Under the pieces are notes generated by a model. That model was given only the letters and a program-made list of their open reading frames with translations, did no database searches and had not been told where the DNA came from. A stretch of DNA of 62,789 bases from Eubacterium sp. (GTDB lineage: Bacteria; Bacillota; Clostridia; Lachnospirales; Lachnospiraceae). The translations under genes and the position numbers were made by a program. The DNA is taken from assembly GCA_017472565.1 (NCBI GenBank), contig JAFUPY010000072.1:1-62789 (forward strand), written 5' to 3'. Each line of letters opens with the position of its first letter. The first letter of the stretch is position 1. Shown in pieces: positions 1 through 13,909 of the stretch.

Positions 1-16
1 CGGAGAAAAATCTCCG
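1..16 (-). terminator. Hairpin after the small membrane protein gene
   Basis: CGGAGA and TCTCCG form a perfect 6-bp stem around four A bases (T on the minus strand). It lies 16 bases after the stop codon of the minus-strand gene ending at 32. The sequence that would show a following T-run is outside the window, so the terminator reading is likely but incomplete. Confidence 0.5.
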
Positions 17-31
17 CCCTTTGCAAATCAA

Positions 32-342: not shown

Positions 343-1134
343 CTATTCCTCTATGGTAAAGGAATCGCAGCTTGCAGTTTGACTGCGTGTACGTAGTTCC
401 TCCATGCTCAGTTCTGCCTTGTGCCCACGATGGCAGGCAATGATTCCACCCAAGTAGCTGGCGCATCCAACCTTGGTGAATCCACTTTTCTGCATCAGAT
501 AGGCAAGATGCTTTCTGCTGATAAATTCTTTACTGTTCTTCGCCATATAGCGAAACTCCATGCCCTTTCCATTTAAGAAAGTGCTGACCGCCGGGATGAC
601 CTTGCCCTGATACACCTCACGAAGCTGCTTAAGCTCGCTTCGCTCTGGTTGAGATGTTTCCAGACAGTAAATCGTACCGCCCGGTCGAAGCACGCGGTAA
701 GCTTCCCTTAATACTTCTTCGCAGTCGCCTACATCCCGAAGTCCAAAGGAAATGACTACACAATCAAAAAACTCATCCCGAAACATCAGATGTTCTGCCT
801 GTTGAAGTAAGAACTCAATGTTGCGAATTGCCTTCTTGCTCTGACGTTTTCTTGCTTGATTCAGCATCTGTTCCGAAAAGTCTACCCCGAACACTTCCAT
901 ATCCGTATGCTGGCTTGCCAAAAGGAACGCCATATCACCGGTTCCGCAGCAAAGATCCAAAATTCTGCGATACTGCCTGTTCTTGATCTCCAGTGCCAAC
1001 TTTTGCTTATAGACACGGTGCATGCCAAGACTTGAAATATCATTCATGGCATCATAGTCGATACTGACGTGTTCAAAGGTCTTGTGGACCTTTTCTGTTT
1101 TTTTCTGTTTTGCAGACTTAAACATGGTTCCCAT
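343..1134 (-). CDS. menG: MenG/UbiE-type C-methyltransferase (demethylmenaquinone methyltransferase-like)
   Basis: This is a SAM-dependent methyltransferase of the UbiE/MenG family, which methylates a ring carbon of prenylated quinols. Visible family marks are YDAMNDISSLGMHRVYK near the N-terminus, the SAM motif ILDLCCGTGDMAF, FGLRDVGD, the post-I motif AYRVLRPGG and the C-terminal GGIIACHRGHK. The 263-residue length is close to the usual 230-260, with a slightly longer C-terminal tail. The start at 1134 is preferred because GAGAGG lies 7 bases upstream; the ATG at 1149 lacks a site. It is the last catalytic gene of the hdr/flx run, 35 bases after flxA. In Bacillus menG sits between hepS and hepT, and HepS-like and HepT genes lie in this run too. 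The actual substrate is unknown: a full menaquinone pathway is not visible here. Confidence 0.82.
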   Translation of the reverse strand: MGTMFKSAKQKKTEKVHKTFEHVSIDYDAMNDISSLGMHRVYKQKLALEIKNRQYRRILDLCCGTGDMAFLLASQHTDMEVFGVDFSEQMLNQARKRQSKKAIRNIEFLLQQAEHLMFRDEFFDCVVISFGLRDVGDCEEVLREAYRVLRPGGTIYCLETSQPERSELKQLREVYQGKVIPAVSTFLNGKGMEFRYMAKNSKEFISRKHLAYLMQKSGFTKVGCASYLGGIIACHRGHKAELSMEELRTRSQTASCDSFTIEE

Positions 1135-1169
1135 AGATTTACCTCTCATGTAACAATTCGAAGCACATC

Positions 1170-2030
1170 TTATTTCTCATCTGGAAGTTCATCCAACTGT
1201 GCCAGGTTAAATACCGGACCATCCAGACAGATGAATTTGCCACCAAGATTGCATCTTCCGCATTTACCAATACCGCATTTCATACGCATTTCCAATGTTG
1301 TAATAACATCTTCCTTTGCAAATCCCATGCGAAGCAGTGCTTCTGAAGCAAATTTTATCATAATTGGTGGTCCACAGAGAACAACTTTTTTGTTTTCCGG
1401 TGAAAAAGCCAGTTCTTCCACGAATGCTGGAACAAAACCTACATTGCCATTCCACTGGGCATTGCCTCTGTCTACGGTTACTTCCACTCTTGTATCAGGC
1501 TCTTTTGGCCAGTTTTCAAAAAGGTCTGGCTTAAATACCAGATCTTCTGGTGAACGGGAGCCATATACGATATCGATATGGCCATAGTCTTCACGATGTT
1601 CAAAGCAGTAACGGATCAGGGAACGTACTGGTGCAAGACCGATACCACCACCGATGAATACAAGATCCTTGCCTTTGATCTCATCGTATGGGAAGTTATT
1701 ACCGTATGGTCCGCGGATTCCCACTTCCTGTCCTTCTGTCATTTCATGAAGCGCGTCTGTTAAGATACCAACTCTTTTGATGGAAGATTCGATCCAGTCC
1801 TCACCTTTTGCAGTGATGGAGAACATACCTTCCCCAACACCGATGACGGAAATCATAGCCAACTGACCTGGTAATGGATCAAATGGTTTCTGACCATCTA
1901 GTGTCTGAAAACGGAAGGTCTTAACATCTGGCGTTTCTTCTGTAATTTTGATTAATTTTACGACCTGTGGTACCAGTGGATTGCAGGTACATTCATGATC
2001 GTGTTCATGTTCATGATTGCAGTCACACAT
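1170..2030 (-). CDS. flxA: FlxA: FAD/NAD(H)-binding subunit of an Hdr-Flx complex
   Basis: This 286-residue protein belongs to the ferredoxin-NADP reductase/DHOD electron-transfer subunit fold. It has an FAD-binding barrel around residues 22-115 (LPGQLAMISV, RGPYGNNFP), an NAD-binding motif GGGIGLAPVRSL at 127-138, and a C-terminal 2Fe-2S site formed by C252, C257, C260 and C268. In Flx-Hdr complexes this subunit takes electrons from NADH and feeds them to HdrA. Its start codon overlaps the flxB stop (TAATG), showing translational coupling. An odd point is the His/Cys-rich N-terminus, residues 2-17 (CDCNHEHEHDHECTCN), which looks like a metal-binding tail. The family call is firm; the flx naming rests on the seven-gene context. 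Confidence 0.85.
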   Translation of the reverse strand: MCDCNHEHEHDHECTCNPLVPQVVKLIKITEETPDVKTFRFQTLDGQKPFDPLPGQLAMISVIGVGEGMFSITAKGEDWIESSIKRVGILTDALHEMTEGQEVGIRGPYGNNFPYDEIKGKDLVFIGGGIGLAPVRSLIRYCFEHREDYGHIDIVYGSRSPEDLVFKPDLFENWPKEPDTRVEVTVDRGNAQWNGNVGFVPAFVEELAFSPENKKVVLCGPPIMIKFASEALLRMGFAKEDVITTLEMRMKCGIGKCGRCNLGGKFICLDGPVFNLAQLDELPDEK

Positions 2031-3016
2031 TAGATTTCCACCTCCGCTACTTTGTCAATAAAGGTTGTAATATCCATATGAGCCGGACATTTTTCTACAC
2101 ATCTGCCACAACCTACACACAGCATTTCACCGTATCTGTCGTGGAAGAAGGATAACTTGTGCATATAACGGTTACGTACACGTTCTTTTTTAGTTGGACG
2201 TGGGTTGTGTCCGCCTGCCATTCTGCTGTAGTCAGAGAACATACAGGAATCCCAACAACGATATTTTGTACCTTCTGCACCATGGTTATCAGAATCAATG
2301 TCGAAGCAGTAACAGGTTGGACATACGTATGTACAGGTTGCACAGCCCAAGCATGCTCTTGTCACTTCATCCCAGATTGGATGTTCGAACATTTTGCCTA
2401 ATTTTTCCGGAAGATCATCTGTTGCGTTTACCTTCAGTTCACAAGCAGTTGTTTTTTCTGCTGTGCCGCCTTCGGAAAGTAAGTCGCCAATCTTTTCCAG
2501 AGCTGCTTTTCCGGCTTCTGTGTACGCTTCCATGACAAGTGCATCCCCCGCATCGTGCATCATCACGTCTGCGTTTGGTGCATCGTTTGGATCTAAGCCC
2601 ATGGAATCACAGAAACAGGTACGGCATACGGTATCACAGCCGTATGCAAACAATAAGGTGTTCTCTCTTTTTCTCTTGTAAAAACTGTCTACAAAGCCTT
2701 TTTCAAAGAACACTTTATCCATCAGGAAAATACTTCTGGCATCACAAGGACGGATACCGAAGATAACCTGCTTTGTGTTATCTACCACTTCTTTGATCTC
2801 GATAGATTTGCCAAGTTTGTAGTTGTACATTTTTTCTGTACATGGGAACAGGATATCCTTTGGAGGAAGTGTTGTGTTATCTCCACCAAGTTCTACTTCC
2901 TGTCCGTCCCACAACATAAAACGTTTTACGTCTGCTACCTGGCCTGGTACAAAGACACTTGCGTCAGCGGCAAGAATCTCTAATGCTTTTGTAATATCTG
3001 ATTTCTTTAACAGCAT
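2030..3016 (-). CDS. flxB: FlxB: iron-sulfur subunit (4Fe-4S dicluster, FrhB/AsrA-like)
   Basis: This 328-residue protein has an N-terminal domain seen in anaerobic sulfite reductase A/hydrogenase beta-type proteins (GIRPCDARSI, LLFAYGCDTVCRTCFC) and two C-terminal ferredoxin-type motifs, CLGCATCTYVCPTCYC and CVGCGRCVEKCP. The ATG at 3016 is the start because GGAGG lies 7 bases before it; longer in-frame readings back to 3115 overlap flxC and lack a site. It should relay electrons between FlxA and FlxC/HdrA. It sits 13 bases after flxC and overlaps flxA by one base. Membership of the Flx-Hdr group is from both sequence and neighbours. Confidence 0.82.
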   Translation of the reverse strand: MLLKKSDITKALEILAADASVFVPGQVADVKRFMLWDGQEVELGGDNTTLPPKDILFPCTEKMYNYKLGKSIEIKEVVDNTKQVIFGIRPCDARSIFLMDKVFFEKGFVDSFYKRKRENTLLFAYGCDTVCRTCFCDSMGLDPNDAPNADVMMHDAGDALVMEAYTEAGKAALEKIGDLLSEGGTAEKTTACELKVNATDDLPEKLGKMFEHPIWDEVTRACLGCATCTYVCPTCYCFDIDSDNHGAEGTKYRCWDSCMFSDYSRMAGGHNPRPTKKERVRNRYMHKLSFFHDRYGEMLCVGCGRCVEKCPAHMDITTFIDKVAEVEI

Positions 3017-3029
3017 CCTACCGCCTCCT

Positions 3030-3866
3030 TTACATAAATTCGTCTCTGTCTGATAAATCAAACTCACCAAGAACATGCTCGTCTTCTGCGCTAAGTCCAC
3101 ATTCATATTCGCCAAATAAATCTTCGATGTCTTTTAACATCTTCTTTGTCTGACGCATGATTGGAAGTCCCATTGGACATACACGTTCACACTCGCCACA
3201 TTCGATACAACGGTCACCTACGTGGTAAACACGGGTTAAGCCGTATACCTGGTTGGAGTTACGATTGTTCTGTTTGCCATCCCATGCTTCTCTCGCCTGG
3301 TCTGCATAACATTCTTTACAGCTGCATGCAGGACATGCATTACGGCAAGCATAGCAATGAATACATTTGTCATACTGAACTGCCCAGTATTCATATCTTT
3401 CATCTGGCGTTAAAGCTTCAAATTCAATGATGTCTTTGAAACGCTCTGGATTCTTCTTATCTTCTACTAATTCACCGATGATCTCATCGTAAACCAATGG
3501 ATTTTTGTGCTGACAACCTTCACAAACCTTGTTTTCCTTGCCATCGCATGGAAGTCCAATGATGTAAAGATTTTCTCTTACAGCCTGTTTGTCCTTAATC
3601 ATACGATTGATCGCTCTCGTATCGCAACCTCTTGCTAAAATACCGATTTTTCCATCTGGATAACGGTCATCTAAGAGATATTTTGCAGTACCATTGATGC
3701 AGTACTTGTTCCAGACAAGTTTGTCTGCATCTTCTGGTTTTGTTACGAAGATTGGCATTGTCTTATCTTCAAAACGGGTAGCGCCCCATCCGATAAAGTA
3801 GGAAACAGTGCCATCTGCTAACAGTGCACGCACACGGTCGCGAATCTGTTCCTGAACATTACTCAT
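3030..3866 (-). CDS. flxC: FlxC: 4Fe-4S dicluster subunit of the Hdr-Flx complex
   Basis: This 278-residue protein has an N-terminal region resembling FrhB-like coenzyme F420 hydrogenase beta proteins (ILARGCDTRAINRM, IIGLPCDGKENKVCEGC) and two ferredoxin motifs, CIHCYACRNACPACSC and CIECGECERVCP. Start at 3866 is supported by GGAGG 8 bases upstream; the codon at 3875 is less likely. Its start overlaps the flxD stop region by 8 bases. In the described Flx-Hdr complex of Desulfovibrio the flxABCD genes adjoin hdrABC; here the order along the transcript is hdrC-hdrB-hdrA-flxD-flxC-flxB-flxA, the mirror arrangement of modules. Confidence 0.82.
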   Translation of the reverse strand: MSNVQEQIRDRVRALLADGTVSYFIGWGATRFEDKTMPIFVTKPEDADKLVWNKYCINGTAKYLLDDRYPDGKIGILARGCDTRAINRMIKDKQAVRENLYIIGLPCDGKENKVCEGCQHKNPLVYDEIIGELVEDKKNPERFKDIIEFEALTPDERYEYWAVQYDKCIHCYACRNACPACSCKECYADQAREAWDGKQNNRNSNQVYGLTRVYHVGDRCIECGECERVCPMGLPIMRQTKKMLKDIEDLFGEYECGLSAEDEHVLGEFDLSDRDEFM

Positions 3867-4329
3867 TCTGGGCACCTCCTTCGTTTGCTGCTGTATACCA
3901 GGTTTCCTGGAACTTCTTGTTTGGTCCCAGTTCTTTAATCTGGGCAGATACTCTTGTTACAGTATCACGGAACTTCACAGCTTCCGCACCGGAGATCCAT
4001 CTTGCCTGGAAACGGTTTGGATCGATGCCGTTGTACTCAAGGAGTCTCTGCATCAGCATAAATCTTCTTCTTGTGAAATAGTTACCGGTTGCGTAATGAC
4101 AGTCACCTGGGTGGCATCCGCATACGAGAACGCCATCCGCACCTTTCTGGAAAGCACGTAAGATGAACTGTGGATTCACACGGCTGGAACATGGTACGCG
4201 GATAACGCGCACGTTCTCAGGATATTTCATACGGTTCAGACCTGCCAAGTCTGCTCCAGTGTAGGTACACCAGTTACAGCAGAATGCGAGAATCTGAGGT
4301 TCCCAATTTTCATTATTGTTTACTGCCAT
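3859..4329 (-). CDS. flxD: FlxD: MvhD/FrhD-like 2Fe-2S adaptor subunit
   Basis: This is 156 residues of the methyl-viologen-reducing hydrogenase delta subunit family, the small protein that links an electron donor module to HdrA. Conserved parts are FCCNWCTYTGADLAG near the N-terminus, VIRVPCSSRVNP, the cysteine motif VCGCHPGDCHYATGN, and NRFQARWISGAEA. GGAGG precedes the ATG at 4329 by 10 bases, and the gene overlaps the end of hdrA by 10 bases. The adjacency to hdrA on one side and flxC on the other fits its bridging role. Confidence 0.9.
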   Translation of the reverse strand: MAVNNNENWEPQILAFCCNWCTYTGADLAGLNRMKYPENVRVIRVPCSSRVNPQFILRAFQKGADGVLVCGCHPGDCHYATGNYFTRRRFMLMQRLLEYNGIDPNRFQARWISGAEAVKFRDTVTRVSAQIKELGPNKKFQETWYTAANEGGAQNE

Positions 4330-6299
4330 AATGCATCTACCTCCCTGAGAATCTGGTCATTTGTATAACCCTGTAAGTCGATAGCACCGGTACGACATGC
4401 AGCTGCACAGCAACCACAGCCCTGACAAAGACCGGAGTTAACATCAGCAACGATACGTCTTACTTTCTTGCCATCGATTCTGTCTTCGATTTCTTTCAAG
4501 CTGATTGCTTTGTATGGACACATTGCCACGCAGTGACCACAACCACAACACTTGGACTGATCGGACTTACTTGTCATTGGAGATGTTTCCATCTCATCTT
4601 TGGAGAACAGACCACAAACTTTAACTGCTGCCGCAGAAGCCTGTGCTACGGTGTCTGGAATATCCTTTGGTCCCTGACAGGTACCACAAAGGAATACACC
4701 ACCTGTCTGTGTTTCTACCGGACGAAGCTTTGGATGTGCTTCCTGAACCCAGCCATCGTTGTCTTTTGCAATACCAAGTTTCTTCACGATGTCTTCCACG
4801 CCTTTTGCTGGAACCATTGCTGTTTCAAGAATTACCATATCTGCTTCTACGGTTACCTGTTTGCCGAGAAGGGAATCTTCACCTTTACAGATGAGACGTC
4901 CACGTTCTTTGTAAATCTTAGATACACGACCACGGATATAGTGAGCACCGTCGTTACGTGTTCTGTCATAGAACTCTTCATAGCCTTTACCAGGTGTACG
5001 AACGTCCATATAGAAAATATAAACGTTGGAACCTGGAATCTTTTCTAAAATCTGATGCGCATGTTTTGCACCGTACATACAGCATGCACGGGAACAATAG
5101 CTCTTGCCCTTCTTCGGATCACGGGAACCAACACATTTTACAATTACGATGTCTTTTGGTTCTGTTCCATCAGATGGACATAAAATGTGACCTTCGGTTG
5201 GACCGGAAGCGTTAACAAGACGTTCGAACTGAAGTCCGCTGATAACATCTTTGAATCTTCCTCCGCCGTATTCTGGATACAGATCCTGCCACTCGATCAG
5301 CTCATAACCGGTTGCAACTACGATGGCACCGTATGTTTCTGTGAATGTGGTATCTGTGTCTTCAAAATTGATTGCTTTTAATGGACATACAATCTGACAT
5401 ACGCCACATTTACCATCAATGAGTTTTTTACAGTGGTCAGCGTCAATGACTGGTTTTGCTGGAACAGCCTGTGCAAAGGATTTGTAGATGGCACGGCGTT
5501 CAGACATACCCTGGTTAAATTCGCTGATTACTTTTGTAGGACATTTTGTCTCACAGAGACCGCAACCGGTACAGATATCGTGGTTTACGTAACGAGCTTT
5601 CTGTTTGATGGTTACTTCAAAGTTTCCTACATAACCACTTACATCTTCTAATTCACAGGATGTTTTTAACGTGATATTTGGATGGGCACTTACCTCTACC
5701 ATCTTCGGTGTACTGATACATGCGGAACAGTCCAGTGTTGGGAATGTTTTATCCAGCATAACCATACGACCGCCGATGGATGGTTCACGATCCATCAGTG
5801 TTACCTGATAACCTGCATCTGCAATATCCAGTGCACACTGAATACCTGCAATACCGCCGCCGATAACCAGTGCTTTTTTGTGAATTGGAATAGTTGTTGT
5901 ATGTAATGGTTTGTTTCTTCCTACCTTAGCAACTGCCATTCTGGTAAGGGCGATGGCTTTCTGTGTTGCTTTTTCTCTGTCTGTGTGTACCCAGGAACAC
6001 TGTTCACGGATGTTGGCGATTTCCAACATGTATGGGTTGATCTTAGTTCCAGACAGCATCTTACGGAATGTATTTTCATGCATTCGAGGTGTACAGGAAG
6101 CAATAACGATACGATCTAAATTGTATTCTTCGATTTTTTCTTTTACCATTGCCTGGCCTGGTTCAGAACACATGTATTTGTAGTCTGTAGAGTAAACTAC
6201 GTTTGGTTCAGATTCCATAGCTCTTGCAACACGCTCAACGTCTACAACGCCTGCAATGTTGGTACCACAATGGCAGATAAATACACCAATACGACTCAT
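4320..6299 (-). CDS. hdrA: HdrA: FAD-containing heterodisulfide reductase subunit A
   Basis: HdrA carries the flavin at which electron bifurcation is thought to occur in Hdr complexes. The 659-residue protein starts with the conserved RIGVFICHCGTNIAG, has a dinucleotide-binding motif GGGIAGIQCALDIADAG from residue 147 and EPSIGGRM shortly after, the HdrA cysteine motif SACISTPKM, and four ferredoxin-type clusters: CTGCGLCETKCP, CGVCQIVCP, and near the C-terminus CCGCGHCVAMCP and CQGCGCCAAACR. The length is normal for single HdrA. Its ATG shares one base with the hdrB stop codon. With FlxA-D it would take electrons from NADH and send them to ferredoxin and, through HdrBC, to a disulfide acceptor; the acceptor in this organism is not known. 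Confidence 0.93.
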   Translation of the reverse strand: MSRIGVFICHCGTNIAGVVDVERVARAMESEPNVVYSTDYKYMCSEPGQAMVKEKIEEYNLDRIVIASCTPRMHENTFRKMLSGTKINPYMLEIANIREQCSWVHTDREKATQKAIALTRMAVAKVGRNKPLHTTTIPIHKKALVIGGGIAGIQCALDIADAGYQVTLMDREPSIGGRMVMLDKTFPTLDCSACISTPKMVEVSAHPNITLKTSCELEDVSGYVGNFEVTIKQKARYVNHDICTGCGLCETKCPTKVISEFNQGMSERRAIYKSFAQAVPAKPVIDADHCKKLIDGKCGVCQIVCPLKAINFEDTDTTFTETYGAIVVATGYELIEWQDLYPEYGGGRFKDVISGLQFERLVNASGPTEGHILCPSDGTEPKDIVIVKCVGSRDPKKGKSYCSRACCMYGAKHAHQILEKIPGSNVYIFYMDVRTPGKGYEEFYDRTRNDGAHYIRGRVSKIYKERGRLICKGEDSLLGKQVTVEADMVILETAMVPAKGVEDIVKKLGIAKDNDGWVQEAHPKLRPVETQTGGVFLCGTCQGPKDIPDTVAQASAAAVKVCGLFSKDEMETSPMTSKSDQSKCCGCGHCVAMCPYKAISLKEIEDRIDGKKVRRIVADVNSGLCQGCGCCAAACRTGAIDLQGYTNDQILREVDALWQ

Positions 6300-7189
6300 T
6301 ATTCAGTAGCACCTCCCTTTTTCAGATATGTATTCAGCAGGTCAAATGCCGGGAAGAAGTGTTTGTGTAAGCCAAGCTCTTTTGCACTTGCGCCCATGCA
6401 TACTGCTAAAAGTTCTGTGAACTGATAGATTGGAAGGTTGTATTTTGTTCCATTTGCAATGTTCAGTTCACCCTCTCTCATATCCAGGTTCAGATTGCAA
6501 AGTGGGCAGGCTGTGATGATTGCCTGTGCGCCGTTTGCTTCTGCGTTGCGTAAGATACGATCCAACTGAGGTCTTGCTACCTTTGGTGCGTCAACCTGAT
6601 GGCTGGCGCCACAACATTCTGTTTTGAAATCCCATTCTACTGGAATGGCACCTGTCAATTTGATGATCTCGTCCATTTCCATTGGGTTTTCTGTTGATTT
6701 TGCACCGGTAATCTGTGCTGGTCTGGAAGTTAAGCAGCCATAATAGCATGCAACCTTCATTCCCTTTAAGTTACGGTACATTTTTTCTTTACACTGTCTC
6801 ATTACTTCAGGCTTAGAAAAGATTTCTAAGAAGTTTAATACTTCCGCCTGTGCCTTAAATGGCATCTGAATGATTTCTTCTAATTCTTTGCGAACTTCTT
6901 CGCTGTTTTTCGCTGCATGAGCTGTGATCTTCATACGGGAGTAGCAGGATGCACATGGAACTGCAACGTCCAGTCCTTTGCCTTCCTTTTCTGCCATAGC
7001 AAGGTTTCTTGCTGGCAGTGCCAGTGCTACTTTTTCATTTTTGGAGTGTGCACATGTTGCACCACAGCAGTTCCAGTCTGGAATTTCATGAAGTACCATA
7101 TTGATCTTGCTGCATACATATTCGATTGAACTCTTGTATGTTCCACCAGTTGTGTCCATGGAACATCCTGGATAATAAGAATACTGCAT
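6299..7189 (-). CDS. hdrB: HdrB: CCG-domain heterodisulfide reductase subunit B
   Basis: HdrB binds the two noncubane 4Fe-4S clusters that reduce a disulfide. The 296-residue protein has the paired CCG motifs: YYPGCSMDTTG, NCCGATCAH and PCASCYSRM in the first half, then ACYYGCLTSRP, ECCGASHQVD and ACPLCNLNLD in the second. All cysteines expected for two CCG domains are present, so the disulfide-reducing site appears intact. It overlaps hdrC and hdrA by one base at each end. The neighbours contain no DsrC-like or other obvious dithiol partner. Confidence 0.92.
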   Translation of the reverse strand: MQYSYYPGCSMDTTGGTYKSSIEYVCSKINMVLHEIPDWNCCGATCAHSKNEKVALALPARNLAMAEKEGKGLDVAVPCASCYSRMKITAHAAKNSEEVRKELEEIIQMPFKAQAEVLNFLEIFSKPEVMRQCKEKMYRNLKGMKVACYYGCLTSRPAQITGAKSTENPMEMDEIIKLTGAIPVEWDFKTECCGASHQVDAPKVARPQLDRILRNAEANGAQAIITACPLCNLNLDMREGELNIANGTKYNLPIYQFTELLAVCMGASAKELGLHKHFFPAFDLLNTYLKKGGATE

Positions 7190-7746
7190 TACTCTTCACT
7201 CCTTTCTTCTGCTCTCTTCATCAGCTCTTTTACTTCAGCCGCCTGTTTTGTCATACTTAATTCTGGTCCAACGATCTTATTCTTGATCATGTGAGGAACG
7301 TTAAGCATATCCTGCATCAAATGACCAGTTGTTACGTTGTAGAGACCTTCCAGTACAACTTCCTGGTTTCTACCAAACATCTTCACATTTTCAAGGAAGA
7401 TATCTGTGAATTTATCTACTTCCTGTACACCAATGATACCGCGTTTCTTTGCTTCCATTCTGGTAAGTTCCATCAGACTTGGAAGGTTGATGTCGTGTGG
7501 ACATCTGTCAACGCAGGTATGACATGCTGCACAGAGCCAGATTGCCTTTGATTTCAGAAGTGGTTTCATCATGCCAAGCTGCAGATAGTGCACAACCTGT
7601 CGTGGCATTAAGTCCATACCACGAGCCATTGGACATCCTGCAGAGCATTTTCCACACTGATAACAGTCATGGAGATTCACGCCAGCTTCTTCTGCAATTT
7701 TGTTTGCCAAAGCTCTTTGACTATTCTGGTTCAGGCATTCATCCAT
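7189..7746 (-). CDS. hdrC: HdrC: two-cluster ferredoxin-like heterodisulfide reductase subunit C
   Basis: This 185-residue protein has two CxxCxxCxxxC motifs: C28, C31, C34, C38 (CYQCGKCSAGCP) and C72, C75, C78, C82 (CAACHTCVDRCP). It relays electrons from HdrA to HdrB. The cluster region is followed by a helical part and no membrane span, so this is the soluble type, not the DsrMK/HdrDE type. It begins 57 bases after hepT, the largest gap between genes from the hdr group and the prenyl synthase genes, but no terminator hairpin is obvious there, so cotranscription is likely. Confidence 0.9.
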   Translation of the reverse strand: MDECLNQNSQRALANKIAEEAGVNLHDCYQCGKCSAGCPMARGMDLMPRQVVHYLQLGMMKPLLKSKAIWLCAACHTCVDRCPHDINLPSLMELTRMEAKKRGIIGVQEVDKFTDIFLENVKMFGRNQEVVLEGLYNVTTGHLMQDMLNVPHMIKNKIVGPELSMTKQAAEVKELMKRAEERSEE

Positions 7747-7803
7747 TTTTCTTTCTCCTTATTTACTAGTGGTAATCCTTTCCAAACCTCAGGCTTGCAA
7801 GGA

Positions 7804-8805
7804 TTACACGGTCCTTTTAACAAGTGTCTGTGCCATTTTGATCAGCGCTGCCTTTCCTTCGCATTCTGGAATCACATCCAGTGCGCGGATCGCCTCACGG
7901 CTGCAGACACGTATCTGAAATTCGGTATGTTCCACACCCTTTGACTGTTGAACATACGCTAATAATGTGTTAATCTCTTGTTTTGTCTTCTCTCGTTTTT
8001 CTGCCAGACGTTCCATTTCCGGATTTGGATTGTTTTTGAATGCATACAACACCGGATAGGTGAAAATGCCTCGTTTCAGATCCTGTCCATTCTGTTTCCC
8101 AAAGCTTTCGGTGCCGGTAAAATCTAAAATGTCATCCTTTAACTGGAATGCAATCCCAATCTGTTCACCGTAAAACCGAAGTGCTTCGCACTGTTTCTTA
8201 TCAAGTCCGCCTGCAATGCCGCCGCAATAGCAGCTTGTGGCAATCAGATAAGCAGTCTTTCTCCTGATCTGTTCGAAATAGGTTTCCAGATTTTGCTTTT
8301 TTGTATCAAAGAGATGCTCCATCTGCTGAAACTCTCCCAGACACATCTGCAGGGAAATCTCAGCCAGGGCTTCGTTAATGCCAGTGCCTCGATACAGGTG
8401 AAGATATTCCATGGCCCTTCCAAGCAAAAAGTCCCCACTCTGCACTGCTGCATGTCGCCCGCTTGTGGTATGGATGGTAGCCACCCCTCTTCTGGTCGGT
8501 GCATCATCCACAACATCGTCGTGAATCAGGGAAGCCGTGTGCATCAGTTCCAGCATACACATCAACGGAATGATCTCCATCTGCGCTCCCGTTCCGATCT
8601 GATGACAGGTCCAAGCTAATGAAGGGCGTAATCGCTTGCCGCCTGCCATCACCACGCGTTCAAGATTTTGTGCCATCTCAAGCTGTTCGGAACGACATAA
8701 CGTCTTCAACTGGGCTTCCATTTCTTTGATTGCAGCCTGCATCAAGTCAAAGGTACTGCTATTTAATTGTTTTTTCACTTGTGCTTTTATCTGCAATCCT
8801 GTCAT
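7804..8805 (-). CDS. hepT: HepT-like long-chain polyprenyl diphosphate synthase
   Basis: This is a trans-prenyltransferase that extends allylic diphosphates with isopentenyl diphosphate. The 333-residue protein has GGKRLRP at 55-61, the first aspartate-rich motif DDVVD at 96-100 followed by RRG, and the second motif LKDDILDF. The residues just before the first motif (MLELMHTASLIH) lack the bulky aromatics that stop chains at C15 or C20, so a long product is expected. Its ATG overlaps the stop of the upstream gene (ATGA), which itself resembles a HepS subunit; two-subunit synthases of the HepS-HepT type make quinone side chains in Bacillus. Placement inside a redox operon, rather than with housekeeping isoprenoid genes, is unusual and supports a quinone-like product. 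Confidence 0.88.
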   Translation of the reverse strand: MTGLQIKAQVKKQLNSSTFDLMQAAIKEMEAQLKTLCRSEQLEMAQNLERVVMAGGKRLRPSLAWTCHQIGTGAQMEIIPLMCMLELMHTASLIHDDVVDDAPTRRGVATIHTTSGRHAAVQSGDFLLGRAMEYLHLYRGTGINEALAEISLQMCLGEFQQMEHLFDTKKQNLETYFEQIRRKTAYLIATSCYCGGIAGGLDKKQCEALRFYGEQIGIAFQLKDDILDFTGTESFGKQNGQDLKRGIFTYPVLYAFKNNPNPEMERLAEKREKTKQEINTLLAYVQQSKGVEHTEFQIRVCSREAIRALDVIPECEGKAALIKMAQTLVKRTV

Positions 8806-9236
8806 AGTCCTATTTCCTCTGCAGCACTGGTCACAAAGGCAAGATATGGTTCCATATCGAATGCTTTGTTTCCGCCGACTGCCAACTTTGTATCACTTTT
8901 TAAATACTCTGCAAACAGATCAATCAGTTTTGGACTGTCAATTGGAATCAAAAACTGAGAAAACTGGCTAAAATAATAGTCCCCCAACAATGTGGCCGTC
9001 TCTGGTTGCTCGTCTACCGTATGATGAAGCTTGCGGTAGAGGAAAAAACACTGGCAGGCAGCCGCATACTCTTTGGTATGTGCGTTTGTTTTGCATGCAG
9101 AAACTGCCTGCTCTAATACTACGTGCTTTTCCATTTCATTTAAGGGGATACAACCAAAACCTTCCCACATCCGGTAGCCTTCGCAAAGGAGAGTATTCAG
9201 TTCGTCATATAGGGGGGATTTCGCGTTAAACATCAT
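8802..9236 (-). CDS. Short HepS-like subunit of a polyprenyl diphosphate synthase (tentative)
   Basis: This encodes 144 residues, largely helical. The stretch ATLLGDYYFSQFSQFLI resembles the GDYLYS-like segment shared by polyprenyl synthases and their noncatalytic HepS subunits, but no DDxxD motif is present. It overlaps the catalytic HepT-like gene by 4 bases, exactly where a partner subunit would be expected. Bacillus HepS is about 250 residues, so this would be a cut-down version. The start is ATG at 9236 or the next codon, with GGAGA 7 bases upstream. An alternative considered was a TorD-type chaperone for the nearby molybdoenzyme, but the helix pattern and lack of TorD motifs make that weaker. 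Confidence 0.5.
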   Translation of the reverse strand: MMFNAKSPLYDELNTLLCEGYRMWEGFGCIPLNEMEKHVVLEQAVSACKTNAHTKEYAAACQCFFLYRKLHHTVDEQPETATLLGDYYFSQFSQFLIPIDSPKLIDLFAEYLKSDTKLAVGGNKAFDMEPYLAFVTSAAEEIGL

Positions 9237-9293
9237 CTAGGTCTCTCCTTTGCGCTTTGCCAATCTTTACTGGTTCAATTTCGTACTACCAAT

Positions 9294-10136
9294 TTAAGCT
9301 TCGAACATCAAGCAACCAAGATTTGGGCTTTCTGTTTTGATTTCTACTTCTTTGGTGATTGTCTGATATCCATCCAGAAGGAATTCCAGTGTGTAGGTTC
9401 CACTGTTCTGTGGCAGGCGGTCAATCTTGAACTCGCCAAGGAAATCTACATAGGTTTCTTTTAAAAGAACCCCGTTCATGGATAATTTCACCTTTGCATC
9501 GGTAGCAGCTACTTCCTTATCGCCATCCATGTATGCCAATGCACCTGCGATAAAGCATTTGTTGTACTTGTACAGATTTCTGTAAAGGACACGTGGCTTG
9601 TTGCTGCCATCTGTTAATGGTTTTAATTTCTGCTTGTCAATGATTTTCTGGAATTCATCATCTTCGCAGTAGTAAACATTCAACGCTCTCAGCGGACAAG
9701 CCTGTACGCAGCGTGGTTCTTTCCATCCATCTTCTAAGAGATGTACACACATGGTACATTTCTGTGCTGTCTGAAGTTCTTCGTTCCACTGAATGTTGCC
9801 GTATGGACAAGCTTCCTTCAGGTTTTTGTTGCCTTTTGCTCTTGCAGCGTCGATTAATACGATACCATCACCACGCTGGATAATTGCATCCGGACATTTA
9901 TTTGCACAAGGTGCATTGTCGCAGTGCTGACAGGTTTTTGTTAAGAAAGCGGTTTCTGTAAATGGCACAGACCCTCTTTCTACTCTTACTGGATTGATCC
10001 ATTTATCTTCATGATGCTGCTGGCAATCCGTATATGGAAGCCAGGAGTTTCCAACATGTTCATCCTTGCAGGCTAAGAGGCAGTTATAACAGCCAACACA
10101 TTTTGCAAGGTCTACAACCATATGCCATTTTTTCAT
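9294..10136 (-). CDS. Iron-sulfur subunit of transhydroxylase-like molybdoenzyme
   Basis: This 280-residue protein belongs to the DMSO-reductase-type iron-sulfur subunits and matches the layout of the small subunit of Pelobacter pyrogallol-phloroglucinol transhydroxylase: about 190 residues with three 4Fe-4S clusters, then a beta-sandwich domain. Cysteine groups include CVGCYNCLLACKDEH near the start, CQHCDNAPCANKCPD, ACPYGN and CTMCVHLLEDGWKEPRCVQACP in part. The C-terminal domain (VKLSMNGVLLKETYVDFLG, GTYTLEFLLDGYQTITKEV) is transthyretin/Cna-B-like. The ATG at 10136 shares a base with the stop of the large subunit (TAATG) and has GGAAGGAG upstream; the codon at 10157 lies inside the large subunit gene. 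No Tat signal or membrane anchor is visible, so the complex is cytoplasmic. Confidence 0.85.
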   Translation of the reverse strand: MKKWHMVVDLAKCVGCYNCLLACKDEHVGNSWLPYTDCQQHHEDKWINPVRVERGSVPFTETAFLTKTCQHCDNAPCANKCPDAIIQRGDGIVLIDAARAKGNKNLKEACPYGNIQWNEELQTAQKCTMCVHLLEDGWKEPRCVQACPLRALNVYYCEDDEFQKIIDKQKLKPLTDGSNKPRVLYRNLYKYNKCFIAGALAYMDGDKEVAATDAKVKLSMNGVLLKETYVDFLGEFKIDRLPQNSGTYTLEFLLDGYQTITKEVEIKTESPNLGCLMFEA

Positions 10137-13100
10137 TATTTTGCATCTCCTTCCCATTTACGAACTTCTACCAGACAGGAGTTAGCTCCCATACCGTGTG
10201 CCCCTTCAACAAGGAATCTCTTGTTTGTCAGGTTGTTGATACATCCATTCTTTTCTACAACGCCATCGCCGCCTGGTTCGCCAAGTGGAACATAGTCAGC
10301 ACAAGCTTCGTAGGAATGTACAACACCAACAGGAACACGTTCTGTTACCTGAAGACCACAGAGTACGTTACCTCTGTCGTTGTATACTTCTACGATGTCA
10401 CCCTGTTTTAATCCACGAGCTGCTGCATCTGCTGGATTCATACGGAAGATCCAGTAACGGAAGCCGTCGATCAACATACGGTGTTCATCGATATCATTGA
10501 TGTTAGAATCTTTACCATCACCCATTGTGTGGAAGCTGTATTTGGAATGTGGTGAAATCAGCTGTAATGGATATTTTTCGTAAAGTTCTGTTGTGTCGCA
10601 GCCTTCCCAGGATGGATGATATTTACAAAGTGGTTCTCTGTCTTTATCGCCTGGAAGTGCACGTTTTAAGGACTGGGATTCAAATTCAAACAGACCAGTC
10701 TGTGTCTGAAGACCTTCTGCATAACGTCCGTAGTATTCAGATGGAAGTGGAGATAATTCTGGTGTATCTTTCTTTCTTCCTTCTGCAAACCATCGGAATG
10801 CAACAGGATCTCTCTTATCTTCTGTAAGTGGTGGAACTACATAGTAACCTTTCTTTAAGAGGCTTCTCCAGGAGATTTTCTTCTTAAGATCGGTTGCTTC
10901 AAAGTATCTTCTTGCCCAGTCATACTCTGTATTACCTTCGGAGAATACCTGCCATAAGCCAAGCTTGTTCGCTACTGCCTGGAAGATATCAAAGTCAGAT
11001 TTGGATTCTCCAAGTGGTTCGATACATTTATGCTGTACGAAGCATACTCTGTGGTTGTTCTGTAAGTAAGATTTTTCAATATAACCACCACAGTTTGCAG
11101 ATTCAGCGATATCCCAACGTTCAAAGTTTGTACATGCTGGCAGGATAACGTCAGCGAATTTTGTTTCGCCTTCGAACCAGATTGCCTGGTTAACAACGAA
11201 ATCCAGACTGTCTGTTCTGTACATCTGTGCAAAACGTTTGGACTGTGGCTGTGTTCCGATGTGAGATCCGCCATATTTCCAGTACATTTTTACAGGATTG
11301 TGTCCTGGTGCCGGATAAATGATCTTCTGGAACTGACCAACTACGCTGAATGGAGGCATTGGATAGCCTTCTGTATATTTGTCAATGATTGCTTCTGGAA
11401 TACGCAGACGTGGAATCTGCTGTGTTTCAGAAGTTACAGATGGAGACTGTGGCATACGGTTGTACAGTGCAACACCTGCACCGGAACCAATATAGTCACC
11501 AGAAAAACCGCCATCTGCATAACCTGGGAACCAGAATCTTGTATCAAGTGGAGTACCATACTGAAGACCACCGAAGTTGATACCTGGTTTACCAGCACCC
11601 TGCATGAATACTAAGCATGTCATGGATGTTGCCCAATCTGTACCATAAGCAGTACGACAAGCACCACCGAAACATGTGATACCGCCACATGCAAGGTATG
11701 TTTTATTTCTTGCCCATTCCTGAGCAAGTGCACGAACAGTACGAGCTGGAATACCTGTGATTGGTTCCTGCCATTCTGGAGATTTTACAACACCATCTTC
11801 TTCGCCCATTACATATGCGCGCCATTTATCAAAACCATAGGTTCTTGTTGCTACATATTCGTGATCGTAGGTATCTTCTTCCATCCAAACCTGTGCAATT
11901 GCGATTGCCAGCGCTGTATCTGTACCTGGTTTTGGAGCGATCCAACGACCTGGAACAAATGCTGCTGTGGAGTTCTGGTATGGATCGATATGAACAACCT
12001 TCATACCCAATTCTTTGATCCATTCACGGCGGATAGTACCTTCCTGCGCACCGTAAACACCGCCTGTTGTTTCTGGGTCAGAGGACCAGAATACGATCAT
12101 ATCAGAGTTCTGCATACAGTCTTCTACTGTAGAGTATGTTTCACATCCACCATTACGAGCAGAACCACCCCAATGGTGAACAGCGCCCCATGCAAAACCT
12201 TCCCAGGAGTCTGGGTTCAATGCTGCTGTTGTAGCACCAAGACAGTTGAAGAAACGTTTTGCTGCGGATAAGTAGTAACCAATATTACCCCACATGTGGT
12301 GAGAACCACAGGTAAAGAATACGGATCCAGGACCATTTTCCTGACGTACACGTACAATTTCTTTTGCTACGATATCAAGGGCTTCTTCCCAGGAAATTCT
12401 TTCATAACCGGAAGTACCACGATTCTGTGGATTTCTTTCTCCATTTGGATCAAAGTCCACACGTTTCATTGGGTAAAGCACACGATCTTTGGAGTAGATC
12501 AGTGATTTATAGAACGCGTAAGGTGCAACGGTTGCTCTCTTTGGAGGTGTAAACTTTTTGCCCTTTGCTGTGATTGTCCATGGTTCAGCATCGTCTGCTT
12601 CGAAATCGATCGGAGTCATACGAACAATCTTGCCGTCTTTTACATATACAAATAATGGACCACCATTTGTTGCGTTTACGTAACGCATTTCGCCATTTGG
12701 CATCTTGGTACCATACTGACCTAAGTAAAGTACGTCAAATGCAAATACTTTTAACAGTAATCCTGCAAACCACATTGCATCGTCATCTGGTCCGTTCAGC
12801 TCGATACCATTGGACTTCGCTGCGTTAACGAAATCGTCCTGTTTGCCCATCATCATACCAGTCATAACGCGCATTGCTACTGCTTCATCTGAGAAGATCA
12901 TATCTACAGTTGCGTCGTTGTAGATACCATTCTTACCTGATACTTTGCCGCCGCTGAATTCGATCAGACGACCAGCGCTCTTGTCCCTGATACGAATCTG
13001 CACTTTCAATTCTTTATCCTTCCATTCATCACCGAATGCAGGACAGGCTTTCGCCAAACCATTTAACATTTTGTCAAGTACAAATAAGGTACCTGTCAAT

Positions 13101-13150
13101 GCTGTTTTGTTCAGCGCACTTGTTGTCTTGTTAACAATTGACTTTGCCAT
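10136..13150 (-). CDS. SCP2-domain fusion of a transhydroxylase-like Mo-bisPGD enzyme, large subunit
   Basis: This 1004-residue protein has two parts. Residues about 20-135 look like an SCP2 sterol/lipid-carrier domain (VQIRIRDKSAGRLIEFSGGK, YNDATVDMIFSDEAV, KSNGIELNGPDDDAMW). From about residue 160 to the end it closely follows pyrogallol-phloroglucinol transhydroxylase: GGPLFVYVKDGKIVRMTP, YPMKRVDFDPNGERNPQ, GSHHMWGNIGY, LNPDSWEGFAWG, VFWSSDPETTGG, FPGYADGG, ACTNFERWDIAESANC, SPHSKYSFHTMGDGK. S315 fits the serine molybdenum ligand, with H284 and D314 as catalytic residues; the arginine expected two residues after the GNxG turn is Y293. There is no N-terminal cluster motif and no Tat signal. 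Family members move or remove ring hydroxyls without oxygen. The residue mapping is from my memory of the Pelobacter enzyme and needs an alignment. True substrate unknown. Confidence 0.88.
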   Translation of the reverse strand: MAKSIVNKTTSALNKTALTGTLFVLDKMLNGLAKACPAFGDEWKDKELKVQIRIRDKSAGRLIEFSGGKVSGKNGIYNDATVDMIFSDEAVAMRVMTGMMMGKQDDFVNAAKSNGIELNGPDDDAMWFAGLLLKVFAFDVLYLGQYGTKMPNGEMRYVNATNGGPLFVYVKDGKIVRMTPIDFEADDAEPWTITAKGKKFTPPKRATVAPYAFYKSLIYSKDRVLYPMKRVDFDPNGERNPQNRGTSGYERISWEEALDIVAKEIVRVRQENGPGSVFFTCGSHHMWGNIGYYLSAAKRFFNCLGATTAALNPDSWEGFAWGAVHHWGGSARNGGCETYSTVEDCMQNSDMIVFWSSDPETTGGVYGAQEGTIRREWIKELGMKVVHIDPYQNSTAAFVPGRWIAPKPGTDTALAIAIAQVWMEEDTYDHEYVATRTYGFDKWRAYVMGEEDGVVKSPEWQEPITGIPARTVRALAQEWARNKTYLACGGITCFGGACRTAYGTDWATSMTCLVFMQGAGKPGINFGGLQYGTPLDTRFWFPGYADGGFSGDYIGSGAGVALYNRMPQSPSVTSETQQIPRLRIPEAIIDKYTEGYPMPPFSVVGQFQKIIYPAPGHNPVKMYWKYGGSHIGTQPQSKRFAQMYRTDSLDFVVNQAIWFEGETKFADVILPACTNFERWDIAESANCGGYIEKSYLQNNHRVCFVQHKCIEPLGESKSDFDIFQAVANKLGLWQVFSEGNTEYDWARRYFEATDLKKKISWRSLLKKGYYVVPPLTEDKRDPVAFRWFAEGRKKDTPELSPLPSEYYGRYAEGLQTQTGLFEFESQSLKRALPGDKDREPLCKYHPSWEGCDTTELYEKYPLQLISPHSKYSFHTMGDGKDSNINDIDEHRMLIDGFRYWIFRMNPADAAARGLKQGDIVEVYNDRGNVLCGLQVTERVPVGVVHSYEACADYVPLGEPGGDGVVEKNGCINNLTNKRFLVEGAHGMGANSCLVEVRKWEGDAK

Positions 13151-13330
13151 AAATGCCTCCCTTTTTTCTTCCTTTTGCTTGGTTTATACTTTTGCATTTC
13201 TTCGGTTTTTATTTTGTATTCGCTTGGTATCCCAAGCAAAATCTATTTTTACCCCACATCACACAGCTTCTTCCTTATGCAGATTTTTGTTCTGTATAAT
13301 ATGTGTAATCTGGGGACAAAATACTACGAG

Positions 13331-13585
13331 TTACATACCAGATGCCTGTTCTGCTGCAAATTTTTCATATTCGCAGTCCTTGTCCAGGTTTTCGGCAATG
13401 ATTGTTTTCAACTGATCTGCAAACTCACGGCCCTTTTCCGGATTGTTTCTGGTGCCATAGTAAGCAGTTACATTGATGATGGTATTGATCATCAGGATCA
13501 TCTCTTCTGCAAAATGATTTGCAGACTGAAATGAAGAATCCAATTCGATTTCATTTTTTTCAACATCCAGCTTAAAATGAATCAT
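13331..13585 (-). CDS. Small soluble protein upstream of the transhydroxylase operon, unknown
   Basis: This encodes 84 residues starting at the ATG at 13585 (MIHFKLDVEKNEIELD), chosen because GGGAGG lies 7 bases upstream; a codon at 13606 would put that site inside the gene. The composition is acidic, with a short beta start and then long helices (AEEMILMINTIINVTAYYG, ADQLKTIIAENLDKDCEYE). There is no signal peptide or membrane span. It is 180 bases upstream of the molybdoenzyme gene on the same strand and is probably first in the transcript. I do not recognise a family; an accessory or regulatory role in the operon is only a guess. Confidence 0.7.
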   Translation of the reverse strand: MIHFKLDVEKNEIELDSSFQSANHFAEEMILMINTIINVTAYYGTRNNPEKGREFADQLKTIIAENLDKDCEYEKFAAEQASGM

Positions 13586-13661
13586 GTTTGCGCCTCCCTT
13601 TTTCACTTTTGCCTTTTCGGCACATACGCAAGTATTTTTGTAGTTTTTTCTTGGTATTTAT

Positions 13662-13673: not shown

Positions 13674-13909
13674 TATGCCCAAAAAAATATTTGCGCAGAC
13701 TTAGCCCTATGATTTGATTATACGCCTATTGATTTTTAATTTCAATACGCAGTTGGTTTATAATTAGAACCTCTACTATTCAATTTTATCATGACGATAT
13801 AACTTTATTGCATAGTAATACAAATTATCACTTTTGTGTTTGTAATTTTTTACAATTTTTGGAATTTTATTTGTGTATTTCTTTTATTTTCGGGACAAAA
13901 AGAGAAACA

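What the first reader, a model, noticed from the sequence alone, without database searches (positions are those of the whole stretch)
343..13585. Candidate oxygen-independent prenyl-polyphenol or quinone-like system built on a transhydroxylase, HepS/HepT, MenG and Hdr-Flx
One tightly packed minus-strand run (stop/start overlaps at most junctions) joins a transhydroxylase-type molybdoenzyme with a lipid-carrier domain, its FeS subunit, a HepS-like plus HepT synthase pair, HdrABC-FlxABCD and a MenG/UbiE methyltransferase. HepS-HepT-MenG is the classic menaquinone side-chain and methylation set. SCP2 domains in UbiJ and UbiT carry quinone intermediates in oxygen-independent ubiquinone synthesis. 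Adding a hydroxyl-transferring enzyme and an NADH-driven redox complex gives a coherent route to hydroxylate or reduce a prenylated aromatic without oxygen. I know of no described pathway of this makeup; such anaerobes are not usually quinone users.
Basis: partly seen in the sequence, partly recalled or inferred. Interest (0 to 1): 0.9.

Follow-up and report, generated by a model that had tools for sequence, protein, structure and literature searches.

The report
Polyphenol molybdoenzyme operon carrying quinone genes
Some gut and rumen bacteria that lack key genes of the two known menaquinone routes carry one conserved gene block that joins a plant-polyphenol type of molybdenum enzyme to genes for building and reducing a membrane quinone, which suggests a new quinone-linked way of using polyphenols without oxygen, still to be tested at the bench.

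Summary
Window 343-13150 (minus) is one operon: molybdenum transhydroxylase-type subunits with an extra N-domain, HepS-like/HepT, HdrABC-FlxABCD, MenG. The contig end cuts it: the window's first 141 bases equal the start of contig G000:C48, so it continues with a small protein, a UbiA prenyltransferase, a radical SAM enzyme and DUF445. The block recurs in 11 other genomes; UbiA is linked to it in 10 of the 12. MenD and MqnA/D were not found. HdrA (8 genomes) and ETF-quinone oxidoreductase (3) never co-occur. So a prenyl-quinone system is well supported. I favour the quinone as electron carrier between a (probably bifurcating) NADH-oxidising complex and the Mo enzyme acting on free polyphenols. 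Head group, redox direction and N-domain fold remain open; SCP2 similarity is below threshold and no structure could be predicted. None of the listings searched describes it.

The parts
13717..13745 (-). promoter-like site TTGAAA-17-TATAAT upstream of the operon
   Evidence: 11 of 12 consensus matches; promoter-like matches in this region are fewer than in shuffles, so only suggestive
13331..13606 (-). small 91-aa ORF of unknown function ahead of the large subunit
   Evidence: 66% identical stretch at the same place in L044; no Pfam family over cut-off
10136..13150 (-). thL: Mo large subunit, AhtL/transhydroxylase type (residues about 155-1004) with an extra N-domain (residues 1 to about 150; SCP2-like below threshold in relatives)
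   Evidence: PF21423 4e-27 and PF00384 4e-33; 4v4c 1e-291 over 155-1002; active-site column check; hydrophobic stretch LLLKVFAFDVLYL
9294..10157 (-). thS: Fe-S small subunit, C-terminal part resembling carboxypeptidase-regulatory-like domains
   Evidence: PF13247 1.4e-23; PF13715/PF13620 at 2e-4, below their cut-offs
8802..9236 (-). hepS-like: presumed non-catalytic partner of the prenyl diphosphate synthase
   Evidence: no family hit; in frame with hepT as one ORF in L036, L038, L039, L045; conserved GDYxFSxFS core
7804..8805 (-). hepT: long-chain polyprenyl diphosphate synthase
   Evidence: PF00348 8e-62; TIGR02748 233 bits, below equivalog cut-off 457; DDVVD at 96 and DDILD at 224
7189..7746 (-). 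hdrC
   Evidence: TIGR03290 3e-21, below cut-off
6299..7189 (-). hdrB
   Evidence: TIGR03288 8e-46; also SdhE of 8-methylmenaquinol:fumarate reductase 3e-44; both below cut-off
4320..6299 (-). hdrA
   Evidence: NF040770 HdrA2 1e-239, below cut-off; 75-84% identical copy in 7 other operon genomes
3859..4329 (-). flxD (MvhD-like)
   Evidence: NF045873 VhuD 1e-39, below cut-off
3030..3875 (-). flxC (presumed 4Fe-4S subunit)
   Evidence: named by position and 65-74% identity in operon relatives; not searched against a family library
2030..3016 (-). flxB (4Fe-4S; start at the ATG at 3016 rather than the TTG at 3115 is my choice)
   Evidence: PF17179 3e-36
1170..2030 (-). flxA (FAD/NAD oxidoreductase)
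   Evidence: PF00175 1e-18; AsrB-like TIGR02911 6e-63, below cut-off
343..1149 (-). menG/ubiE-type C-methyltransferase
   Evidence: PF01209 3e-65; TIGR01934 214.6 bits, cut-off 158
32..232 (-). 66-aa small protein with one hydrophobic stretch; similar small ORFs lie just ahead of UbiA in 7 relatives
   Evidence: also after hepT in L035 and near fixC in L040 and L044; no Pfam family over cut-off
1..141 (.). contig junction: matches (as reverse complement) the first 141 bases of contig G000:C48, where UbiA (L032 168-1280), radical SAM (1301-2194), a His-rich ORF and DUF445 (2529-3443) follow
   Evidence: 141-base exact end overlap; families

Best explanation
A self-contained quinone-linked polyphenol redox operon. 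HepS/HepT make a long prenyl chain, the UbiA joined to the operon attaches it to an aromatic acid, and MenG (where present) methylates the ring, giving a membrane quinone in bacteria in which MenD and MqnA/D were not found. An NADH-oxidising flavin complex (HdrABC-FlxABCD here, an ETF-quinone oxidoreductase in three relatives) exchanges electrons with that quinone, probably by bifurcation. The quinol/quinone exchanges electrons with the N-domain form of the transhydroxylase-type molybdoenzyme, which acts on free polyphenols: reductive dehydroxylation as electron sink is the likelier direction, water-dependent hydroxylation of the resorcinol-hydroxylase kind the alternative. SHOWN by sequence: the gene block, its recurrence, the UbiA linkage, no MenD or MqnA/D hit, the HdrA versus ETF-QO swap, conservation of the recalled transhydroxylase active-site residues, and extra copies elsewhere in 10 of 12 operon genomes. 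INFERRED: that the product is a quinone, that the Mo enzyme meets it through the N-domain, bifurcation, the direction of electron flow, and the head group (scavenged or new).
For: Operon order kept in 11 other genomes as far as contigs reach. UbiA on the operon's contig in 9 of 12 and joined by contig overlap in the window's own genome, against 32 of 200 family genomes with any UbiA over cut-off. In the tree of 31 copies the 13 with the N-domain (9 operon, G226, 2 betaproteobacteria, Zixibacteria) are split from the other 18, Pelobacter included, with support 1.000. 10 of 12 operon genomes hold at least one further copy outside the operon, and the N-domain query hit none of the 14 loci read for them. 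The four N-domain genomes outside the operon set that were tested (G226, G403, G404, G405) all encode a UbiA. In all 10 operon N-domains examined the last helix is strongly hydrophobic (17-residue Kyte-Doolittle mean 1.62-1.80, against 0.65-0.98 in 5 relatives with no prenyl genes on the DNA held; scale as recalled). Precedent: resorcinol hydroxylase, a Ser-ligated relative, is described as an electron donor enzyme in anaerobic respiration (PMC10100899, passages).
Against: The SCP2 identity of the N-domain is below threshold, two further tests found nothing and no structure could be predicted. The known transhydroxylase reaction needs no net electrons (recalled). G226 has the N-domain enzyme beside phloroglucinol genes with no prenyl or Hdr genes in the 40 kb held, and its N-domain has a hydrophobic stretch of its own near the N-terminus (19-residue mean 2.09), so lipid contact may not be special to operon copies. 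menG is seen linked in only 4 of 12 (window, L040, L044, L050; three contigs end too early to tell). The FixC-like protein passes NF007450 and PF21162 but not the FixC model (467 against 610 bits), and the FixX-like protein is below its cut-off. No quinone has been measured; HdrABC-Flx is classically a disulfide-reducing complex (recalled). EtfA in Sporobacter is named by eye and EtfB was not identified. G000 is 68.6% complete, so absences there are weak alone; completeness of the other MAGs is not told.
Confidence: 0.45

Rival explanations
1. One reading: ThLS hydroxylates (or moves a hydroxyl on) the prenylated ring without oxygen, holding the lipid through its N-domain, and MenG then methylates it; a new quinone biosynthesis pathway in which the Mo enzyme replaces UbiU/V- or flavin-type hydroxylases.
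For: Tight thLS-hepS-hepT order in all 12 as far as contigs reach; further copies outside the operon in 10 of 12 operon genomes, so this copy is probably not needed for catabolism; the UbiA is a clade of its own in 9 genomes, 41-68% identical to the window's, against 16-25% for 4 other UbiAs, and the window's is below MenA equivalog cut-offs; no head-group route found; hydrophobic last helix in all 10 operon N-domains and in none of 5 relatives.
Against: Two other N-domain copies (G226, L043) sit in phloroglucinol-type catabolic clusters without prenyl genes there; active-site residues recalled for pyrogallol are kept, and pocket size was not tested; the redox module is unexplained by a hydroxyl transfer alone.
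Confidence: 0.25
2. Ordinary menaquinone from scavenged DHNA: UbiA is a divergent MenA, with HepS/T and MenG finishing menaquinone from a precursor released by neighbours; the transhydroxylase is a catabolic gene that merely shares the operon.
For: menA plus ubiE without the rest is a known pattern and DHNA feeds gut bacteria (PMC5738691, passages); the UbiA's best families are MenA models; Sporobacter's UbiA near thL passes the TIGR00751 cut-off; 10 of 12 operon genomes have DPGC- plus TfD-type phloroglucinol genes, which could use a transhydroxylase.
Against: The window's UbiA is below the cut-offs of all 10 models it hit; the same thLS-hepST unit recurs in Sporobacter (Oscillospiraceae) and Lachnospiraceae MAGs; 10 of 12 genomes have other transhydroxylase-type copies for catabolism.
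Confidence: 0.22
3. No functional link: a catabolic transhydroxylase and an isoprenoid/redox gene set are neighbours by regulation or transfer only.
For: G226 has the enzyme without the set in the 40 kb held; menG is not always linked.
Against: Conserved order, overlapping genes, hepS-hepT fusion, and replacement of one electron module by another.
Confidence: 0.08

Closest known systems
[quoted passage not shown]
   Same: Large subunit aligns over 155-1002 at 1e-291; H144, Y152, D174, S175, W176, Y404, C557, Y560 kept in the window copy (residue list recalled); Fe-S small subunit with a similar make-up (4v4c's small subunit not compared).
   Different: About 150-residue N-domain absent from 4v4c; W354 replaced by F; separate from Pelobacter in the tree; sits with prenyl and redox genes.
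Resorcinol hydroxylase (RhL/RehLS), named from PMC10100899
   Same: Same Ser-ligated group; described there as an electron donor enzyme in anaerobic respiration (passages).
   Different: No sequence could be compared here, so membership is untested; prenyl genes are not mentioned in the passages seen.
Menaquinone/demethylmenaquinone tail end (HepST-MenA-MenG; DHNA scavenging)
   Same: Same enzyme families: PF00348, PF01040, PF01209.
   Different: MenD and MqnA/D not found; UbiA and HepT below equivalog cut-offs; joined to a Mo enzyme, radical SAM and DUF445.
HdrABC-FlxABCD and EtfAB-FixCX electron complexes
   Same: Hdr-Flx gene set in the window by family and position; FixC-like genes in three relatives.
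   Different: Not known to me as partners of a transhydroxylase-type enzyme; never both in one of the 12 genomes.
Gut catechol dehydroxylases
   Same: bis-MGD enzymes acting on polyphenols in gut bacteria.
   Different: Reported to cluster away from pyrogallol hydroxytransferase (PMC7028382, passages), whereas this enzyme's best solved relative is that enzyme.

Membership tests
Pyrogallol-phloroglucinol transhydroxylase (AthLS) | AhtL-type Mo subunit with Ser ligand and pyrogallol-site residues | tested here: met
   PF21423; column check, residue list recalled; W354 is F
Pyrogallol-phloroglucinol transhydroxylase (AthLS) | Groups with the characterised Pelobacter enzyme | tested here: not met
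   Pelobacter groups with L184_p2 and L185_p1; the 13 N-domain copies are separated from the other 18 with support 1.000
Pyrogallol-phloroglucinol transhydroxylase (AthLS) | Transhydroxylase activity | not testable with these tools
   needs purified enzyme
SCP2 lipid-carrier domain (as in UbiJ/UbiT) | Match to PF02036 over cut-off or SCP2 fold | tested here: inconclusive
   5 of 15 members sub-threshold, best 18.8 bits against cut-off 21.3, window member none; hhalign and reverse profile negative; structure queue full
Classical menaquinone pathway | MenD | tested here: not met
   0 of 12 genomes over cut-off; the window's genome is 68.6% complete
Futalosine menaquinone pathway | MqnA/MqnD | tested here: not met
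   2 of 14 genomes with a Pfam hit over cut-off, both judged ABC-transporter proteins from their neighbours
MenA (DHNA prenyltransferase) | NCBIfam MenA equivalog cut-off | tested here: not met
   window genome UbiA 127 bits against 264, and 86 against 102 for TIGR00751; Sporobacter UbiA near thL does pass TIGR00751, 138.5 bits
MenG/UbiE | TIGR01934 subfamily cut-off | tested here: met
   214.6 against 158.35; the UbiE/MenG equivalogs listed are below their cut-offs, the nearest 212.7 against 216
HdrABC-FlxABCD | All seven subunits contiguous | tested here: met
   models below equivalog cut-offs, flxC by position and identity only
ETF-quinone oxidoreductase (FixC) in relatives | PF21162 quinone-binding domain and FixC model | tested here: inconclusive
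   PF21162 over cut-off in 3 of 12 genomes and NF007450 479.9 against 466, but the FixC model NF007542 466.8 against 610
Oxygen-independent ubiquinone pathway (UbiT/U/V) | UbiU/UbiV U32 proteins | not tested
   none recognised among the operon genes; the genome was not searched for them
Resorcinol hydroxylase (RhL) | Orthology to Azoarcus RehL | not testable with these tools
   no RehL sequence obtained; primary paper not held

The most novel reading that the evidence does not exclude
A third, oxygen-independent route to a respiratory-type quinone in strict anaerobes: a transhydroxylase-type molybdoenzyme with a lipid-holding N-domain moves a hydroxyl group (from water or a dietary polyphenol) onto a prenylated aromatic ring, a radical SAM enzyme and MenG tailor it, and Hdr-Flx or an ETF-quinone oxidoreductase reduces it, so that dietary polyphenols become both the raw material and the electron sink of a new quinone.
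Probability: 0.22. Interest if true: 0.92.

Novelty: new variant of a known kind. Interest (0 to 1): 0.72.

Why it matters
Gut and rumen Clostridia of this type are mostly taken as quinone-free fermenters (my general knowledge). A conserved operon that supplies its own prenyl-quinone machinery and ties it to polyphenol chemistry would mean quinone-linked energy conservation from dietary polyphenols, bearing on rumen hydrogen flow, on how the gut community handles tannins and gallate, and on how quinones can be made or completed without MenD or futalosine enzymes. It makes the question directly testable in one cultured species, Sporobacter termitidis DSM 10068.

Tried and rejected
Considered and rejected: (1) the operon is a one-off or assembly accident: rejected, 11 further genomes. 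(2) MqnA/D present in two genomes: rejected, both hits are solute-binding-type proteins next to permease- and ATPase-like genes, named by eye. (3) MenD hits in all 12: all below cut-off (55.8 to 81.8 bits for the best hit of each genome, cut-off 244.2), read as acetolactate-synthase-like, which is my inference. (4) The radical SAM as a family-wide quinone marker: of 200 family genomes only the window's had a close copy; nine others have a 32-36% homologue. The UbiA query hit none of those nine loci, and in the four whose ORFs I listed (L103, L105, L107, L111) the neighbour is a HemN-like radical SAM gene, named by eye. (5) The transhydroxylase as simply the catabolic pyrogallol enzyme: weakened by extra copies in 10 of 12 genomes (G397's has a stop inside), but it stays possible where there is one copy (G000 at 68.6% completeness, G400, G226).

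Led nowhere: structure prediction of the N-domain (19 attempts, queue full); profile comparisons of the N-domain with held SCP2 proteins and with PDB sequences; HepS profile against PDB, best a weak match to solanesyl diphosphate synthases at E 0.012, which are catalytic homologues and not HepS; literature searches for transhydroxylase with menaquinone and prenyltransferase (0 papers) and for related combinations. 'Not in print' means only that no title or abstract start in those listings describes it; I read passages of PMC7028382, PMC10100899, PMC10470551, PMC7327174, PMC3971608, PMC12203004 and PMC5738691, and of the other papers only search listings.

Limits: of the 20 loci, 11 carry the hepS/hepT operon and 9 do not on the DNA held; L042 (4.3 kb) ends inside thS and L041 and L046 (7.5 kb each) are short, so absence there is weak. 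L037 (G393) ends inside hepS. One copy on the N-domain-free side of the tree, L041_p1, is cut by its contig start, so its N-domain cannot be judged; the reading-frame starts of L187_p2 and L188_p3 are longer than the likely starts. The active-site residue list of the Pelobacter enzyme and the hydropathy scale are recalled. MenB, MenC, MenE and UbiU/V were not searched.

Full report
OBSERVATION. The minus-strand run is real. From the upstream end: a 91-aa ORF (13331-13606), the Mo large subunit thL (10136-13150), the Fe-S subunit thS (9294-10157), a HepS-like ORF (8802-9236), hepT (7804-8805), hdrC, hdrB, hdrA (7746 down to 4320), flxD, flxC, flxB, flxA (4329 down to 1170) and menG (343-1149). 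Seven of the eleven junctions from thL to menG overlap. Family searches support the names, mostly below equivalog cut-offs, except HepS, which hits nothing, and flxC, which was not searched. The HepS-like stretch is read in frame with hepT as one ORF in L036, L038, L039 and L045, which supports the name.

THE OPERON IS CUT BY THE CONTIG END. The genome (2.1 Mb in 126 contigs, 68.6% complete) has one UbiA-family match, near the start of the 3.7-kb contig C48. The window's end on the reading side overlaps the start of C48 by 141 exact bases. The order is therefore menG, a 66-aa protein with one hydrophobic stretch (window 32-232), UbiA, a radical SAM protein, a His-rich ORF and DUF445. An exact end overlap could also mark a branch in the assembly, but relatives on longer contigs show the order small protein, UbiA, radical SAM, DUF445, so the overlap is not the only evidence for the join.

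RECURRENCE. One scan of 84,980 species genomes gave 20 loci; 11 carry thL-thS-hepS and, where the contig goes on, hepT: Sporobacter termitidis DSM 10068, three Parasporobacterium MAGs, five Lachnospiraceae MAGs, one Eubacterium sp. MAG and one Clostridia MAG. With the window that is 12 genomes. UbiA is found in 11 of them (not in G393). It is on the contig of thL in seven (G391, G392, G394, G395, G396, G399, G400; in Sporobacter, G391, on the opposite strand beyond fixC), on a contig with the flx end of the operon in two (G398, G401), joined by overlap in the window's genome, and elsewhere, beside another menG, in G397. By comparison 32 of 200 genomes of the window's family have any UbiA over the cut-off. 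In nine genomes the linked UbiA forms one clade (support 1.000); the other eight are 41-68% identical to the window's, four other UbiAs 16-25%; the radical SAM gene follows it in the same nine. The window's UbiA is below the MenA equivalog cut-offs, while Sporobacter's near thL passes TIGR00751. menG is linked in the window, L040, L044 and L050; in L037, L045 and L052 the contig ends too early to tell.

NO HEAD-GROUP ROUTE FOUND. MenD: 0 of 12 over cut-off. MqnA/D: 2 of 14 Pfam hits, both judged solute-binding proteins in transporter operons. MenB, MenC, MenE and UbiU/V were not searched. The head group is either scavenged (DHNA feeding of gut bacteria is documented, PMC5738691, passages) or made in an unknown way.

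THE ELECTRON MODULE IS SWAPPED. The ETF-quinone oxidoreductase domain PF21162 is in exactly G391, G396 and G397, where the FixC-like gene sits beside thL or menG, with a FixX-like protein (below its cut-off) in G396 and G397 and an EtfA-like ORF, named by eye, in Sporobacter. The FixC-like protein passes NF007450 but not the FixC model. G393, whose thL contig ends inside hepS, has neither. That two unrelated complexes take the same place is the best sign that the operon product is a quinone-type electron carrier.

THE MO ENZYME IS A SPECIAL FORM. It matches the Pelobacter enzyme from residue 155 on (1e-291) and keeps the pyrogallol-site residues that I recall from the crystal structure, except W354, which is F in all 9 operon copies tested and G226, but also in two Sporobacter paralogues; one of the two G394 operon copies has N for Y152. 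The first 150 residues are an added domain. In a tree of 31 copies the 13 with it (9 operon copies, G226, two betaproteobacteria, Zixibacteria) are split from the other 18, Pelobacter's among them, with support 1.000. None of the 18 shows the domain, though L041_p1 is cut by its contig start. Ten of 12 operon genomes have at least one further copy outside the operon (G000 and G400 do not); the N-domain query hit none of the 14 loci read. Those of G391, G392, G394, G395, G398 and G401 lie beside PGR-like genes, several also beside DPGC-like, TAL- or TfD-like or thiolase-like genes; those of G393, G396, G397 and G399 do not on the DNA read, although Pelobacter's enzyme groups with copies of G396 and G399. 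DPGC- plus TfD-type genes are found together in 10 of 12 operon genomes, in Sporobacter at only 34-35% identity, and not in G393 or G400 (functions by homology to PMC10470551, passages). So most of these bacteria are probable phloroglucinol users, and the operon copy is in most not their only transhydroxylase-type enzyme. Against a purely biosynthetic reading, G226 has the N-domain enzyme beside PGR-TfD-TAL-DPGC genes with no prenyl genes in that locus, and L043 (N-domain) and L047 (no N-domain) have cyclase genes near theirs; L053 does not, nor do the ORFs of L041.

THE N-DOMAIN. SCP2 is the family hit most often, always below threshold (5 of 15 members, best E 0.0021 over almost the whole profile). 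Two other comparisons gave nothing and no structure could be predicted. One result is independent of the SCP2 name: the last helix is strongly hydrophobic in all 10 operon N-domains and only mildly so in 5 relatives with no prenyl genes on the DNA held (17-residue means 1.62-1.80 against 0.65-0.98). That fits contact with a lipid or membrane in the operon form. Against this, G226's domain has a strongly hydrophobic stretch near its N-terminus (19-residue mean 2.09).

MECHANISM. I put 0.45 on a quinone that carries electrons between an NADH-oxidising, probably bifurcating complex and the Mo enzyme acting on free polyphenols. It accounts for the swap, for a self-supplied quinone in genomes where no known quinone route was found, for a UbiA in all four N-domain genomes tested outside the operon set (G226, G403, G404, G405), and for the hydrophobic helix.

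KNOWN OR NEW. The parts are known families. No title or abstract start listed by the searches describes their combination. I rate it a new variant of known kinds, with a categorically new pathway not excluded.

Noticed in passing
window 15705-17012, 53856-55892, 56158-57201, 59099-60028, 60240-61601, 61866-62744: Three URO-D-type methyltransferase genes, a hydantoinase-A-type gene, CobW and an FMN reductase: likely corrinoid methyl transfer or O-demethylation of methoxylated compounds (families; function inferred).
   Followed up: partly
L147, L148 (window's genome): Two separate phloroglucinol-type clusters, one with PGR-TfD-DPGC-TAL and one with TAL-DPGC-TfD, whose DPGC types differ; the second may serve another ring substrate.
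   Followed up: partly
L187, L189, L190 (and probably L196): A far AhtL-type branch (42-44% over the N-terminal half) in which Y152 is P and Y404 is I in the three copies checked, next to an ordinary paralogue: possibly another reaction. L196 has the same gene pair but was not in the tree.
   Followed up: no
window 25921-30783: 1620-aa surface-type protein with many His/Cys-rich repeats (HTHxxxC-like), in a locus with sortase- and signal-peptidase-like ORFs, all named by eye.
   Followed up: no
window 48374-51558: SMC-like gene read as two overlapping ORFs (48374-50473, 50383-51558): a frameshift or assembly error (named by eye).
   Followed up: no
L084, L094: In Sporobacter and G226 a polyprenyl synthase and UbiA lie with a pyridine-nucleotide oxidoreductase and a small ORF of cluster c18, resembling the flavin-based extracellular electron transfer locus (resemblance recalled).
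   Followed up: no
L103-L111: Nine of 200 family genomes carry a 32-36% homologue of the operon's radical SAM gene; the UbiA query hit none of the nine loci, and in the four read the neighbour is a HemN-like radical SAM gene.
   Followed up: partly
L086 6679-8620: In G394 an amidohydrolase gene (7008-8219) and a second copy of the small protein sit between flxA and UbiA.
   Followed up: no
L125, L127: Two betaproteobacterial genomes with an N-domain transhydroxylase also have an SCP2 protein next to a UbiV-like gene (UbiV and UbiT named by eye).
   Followed up: no
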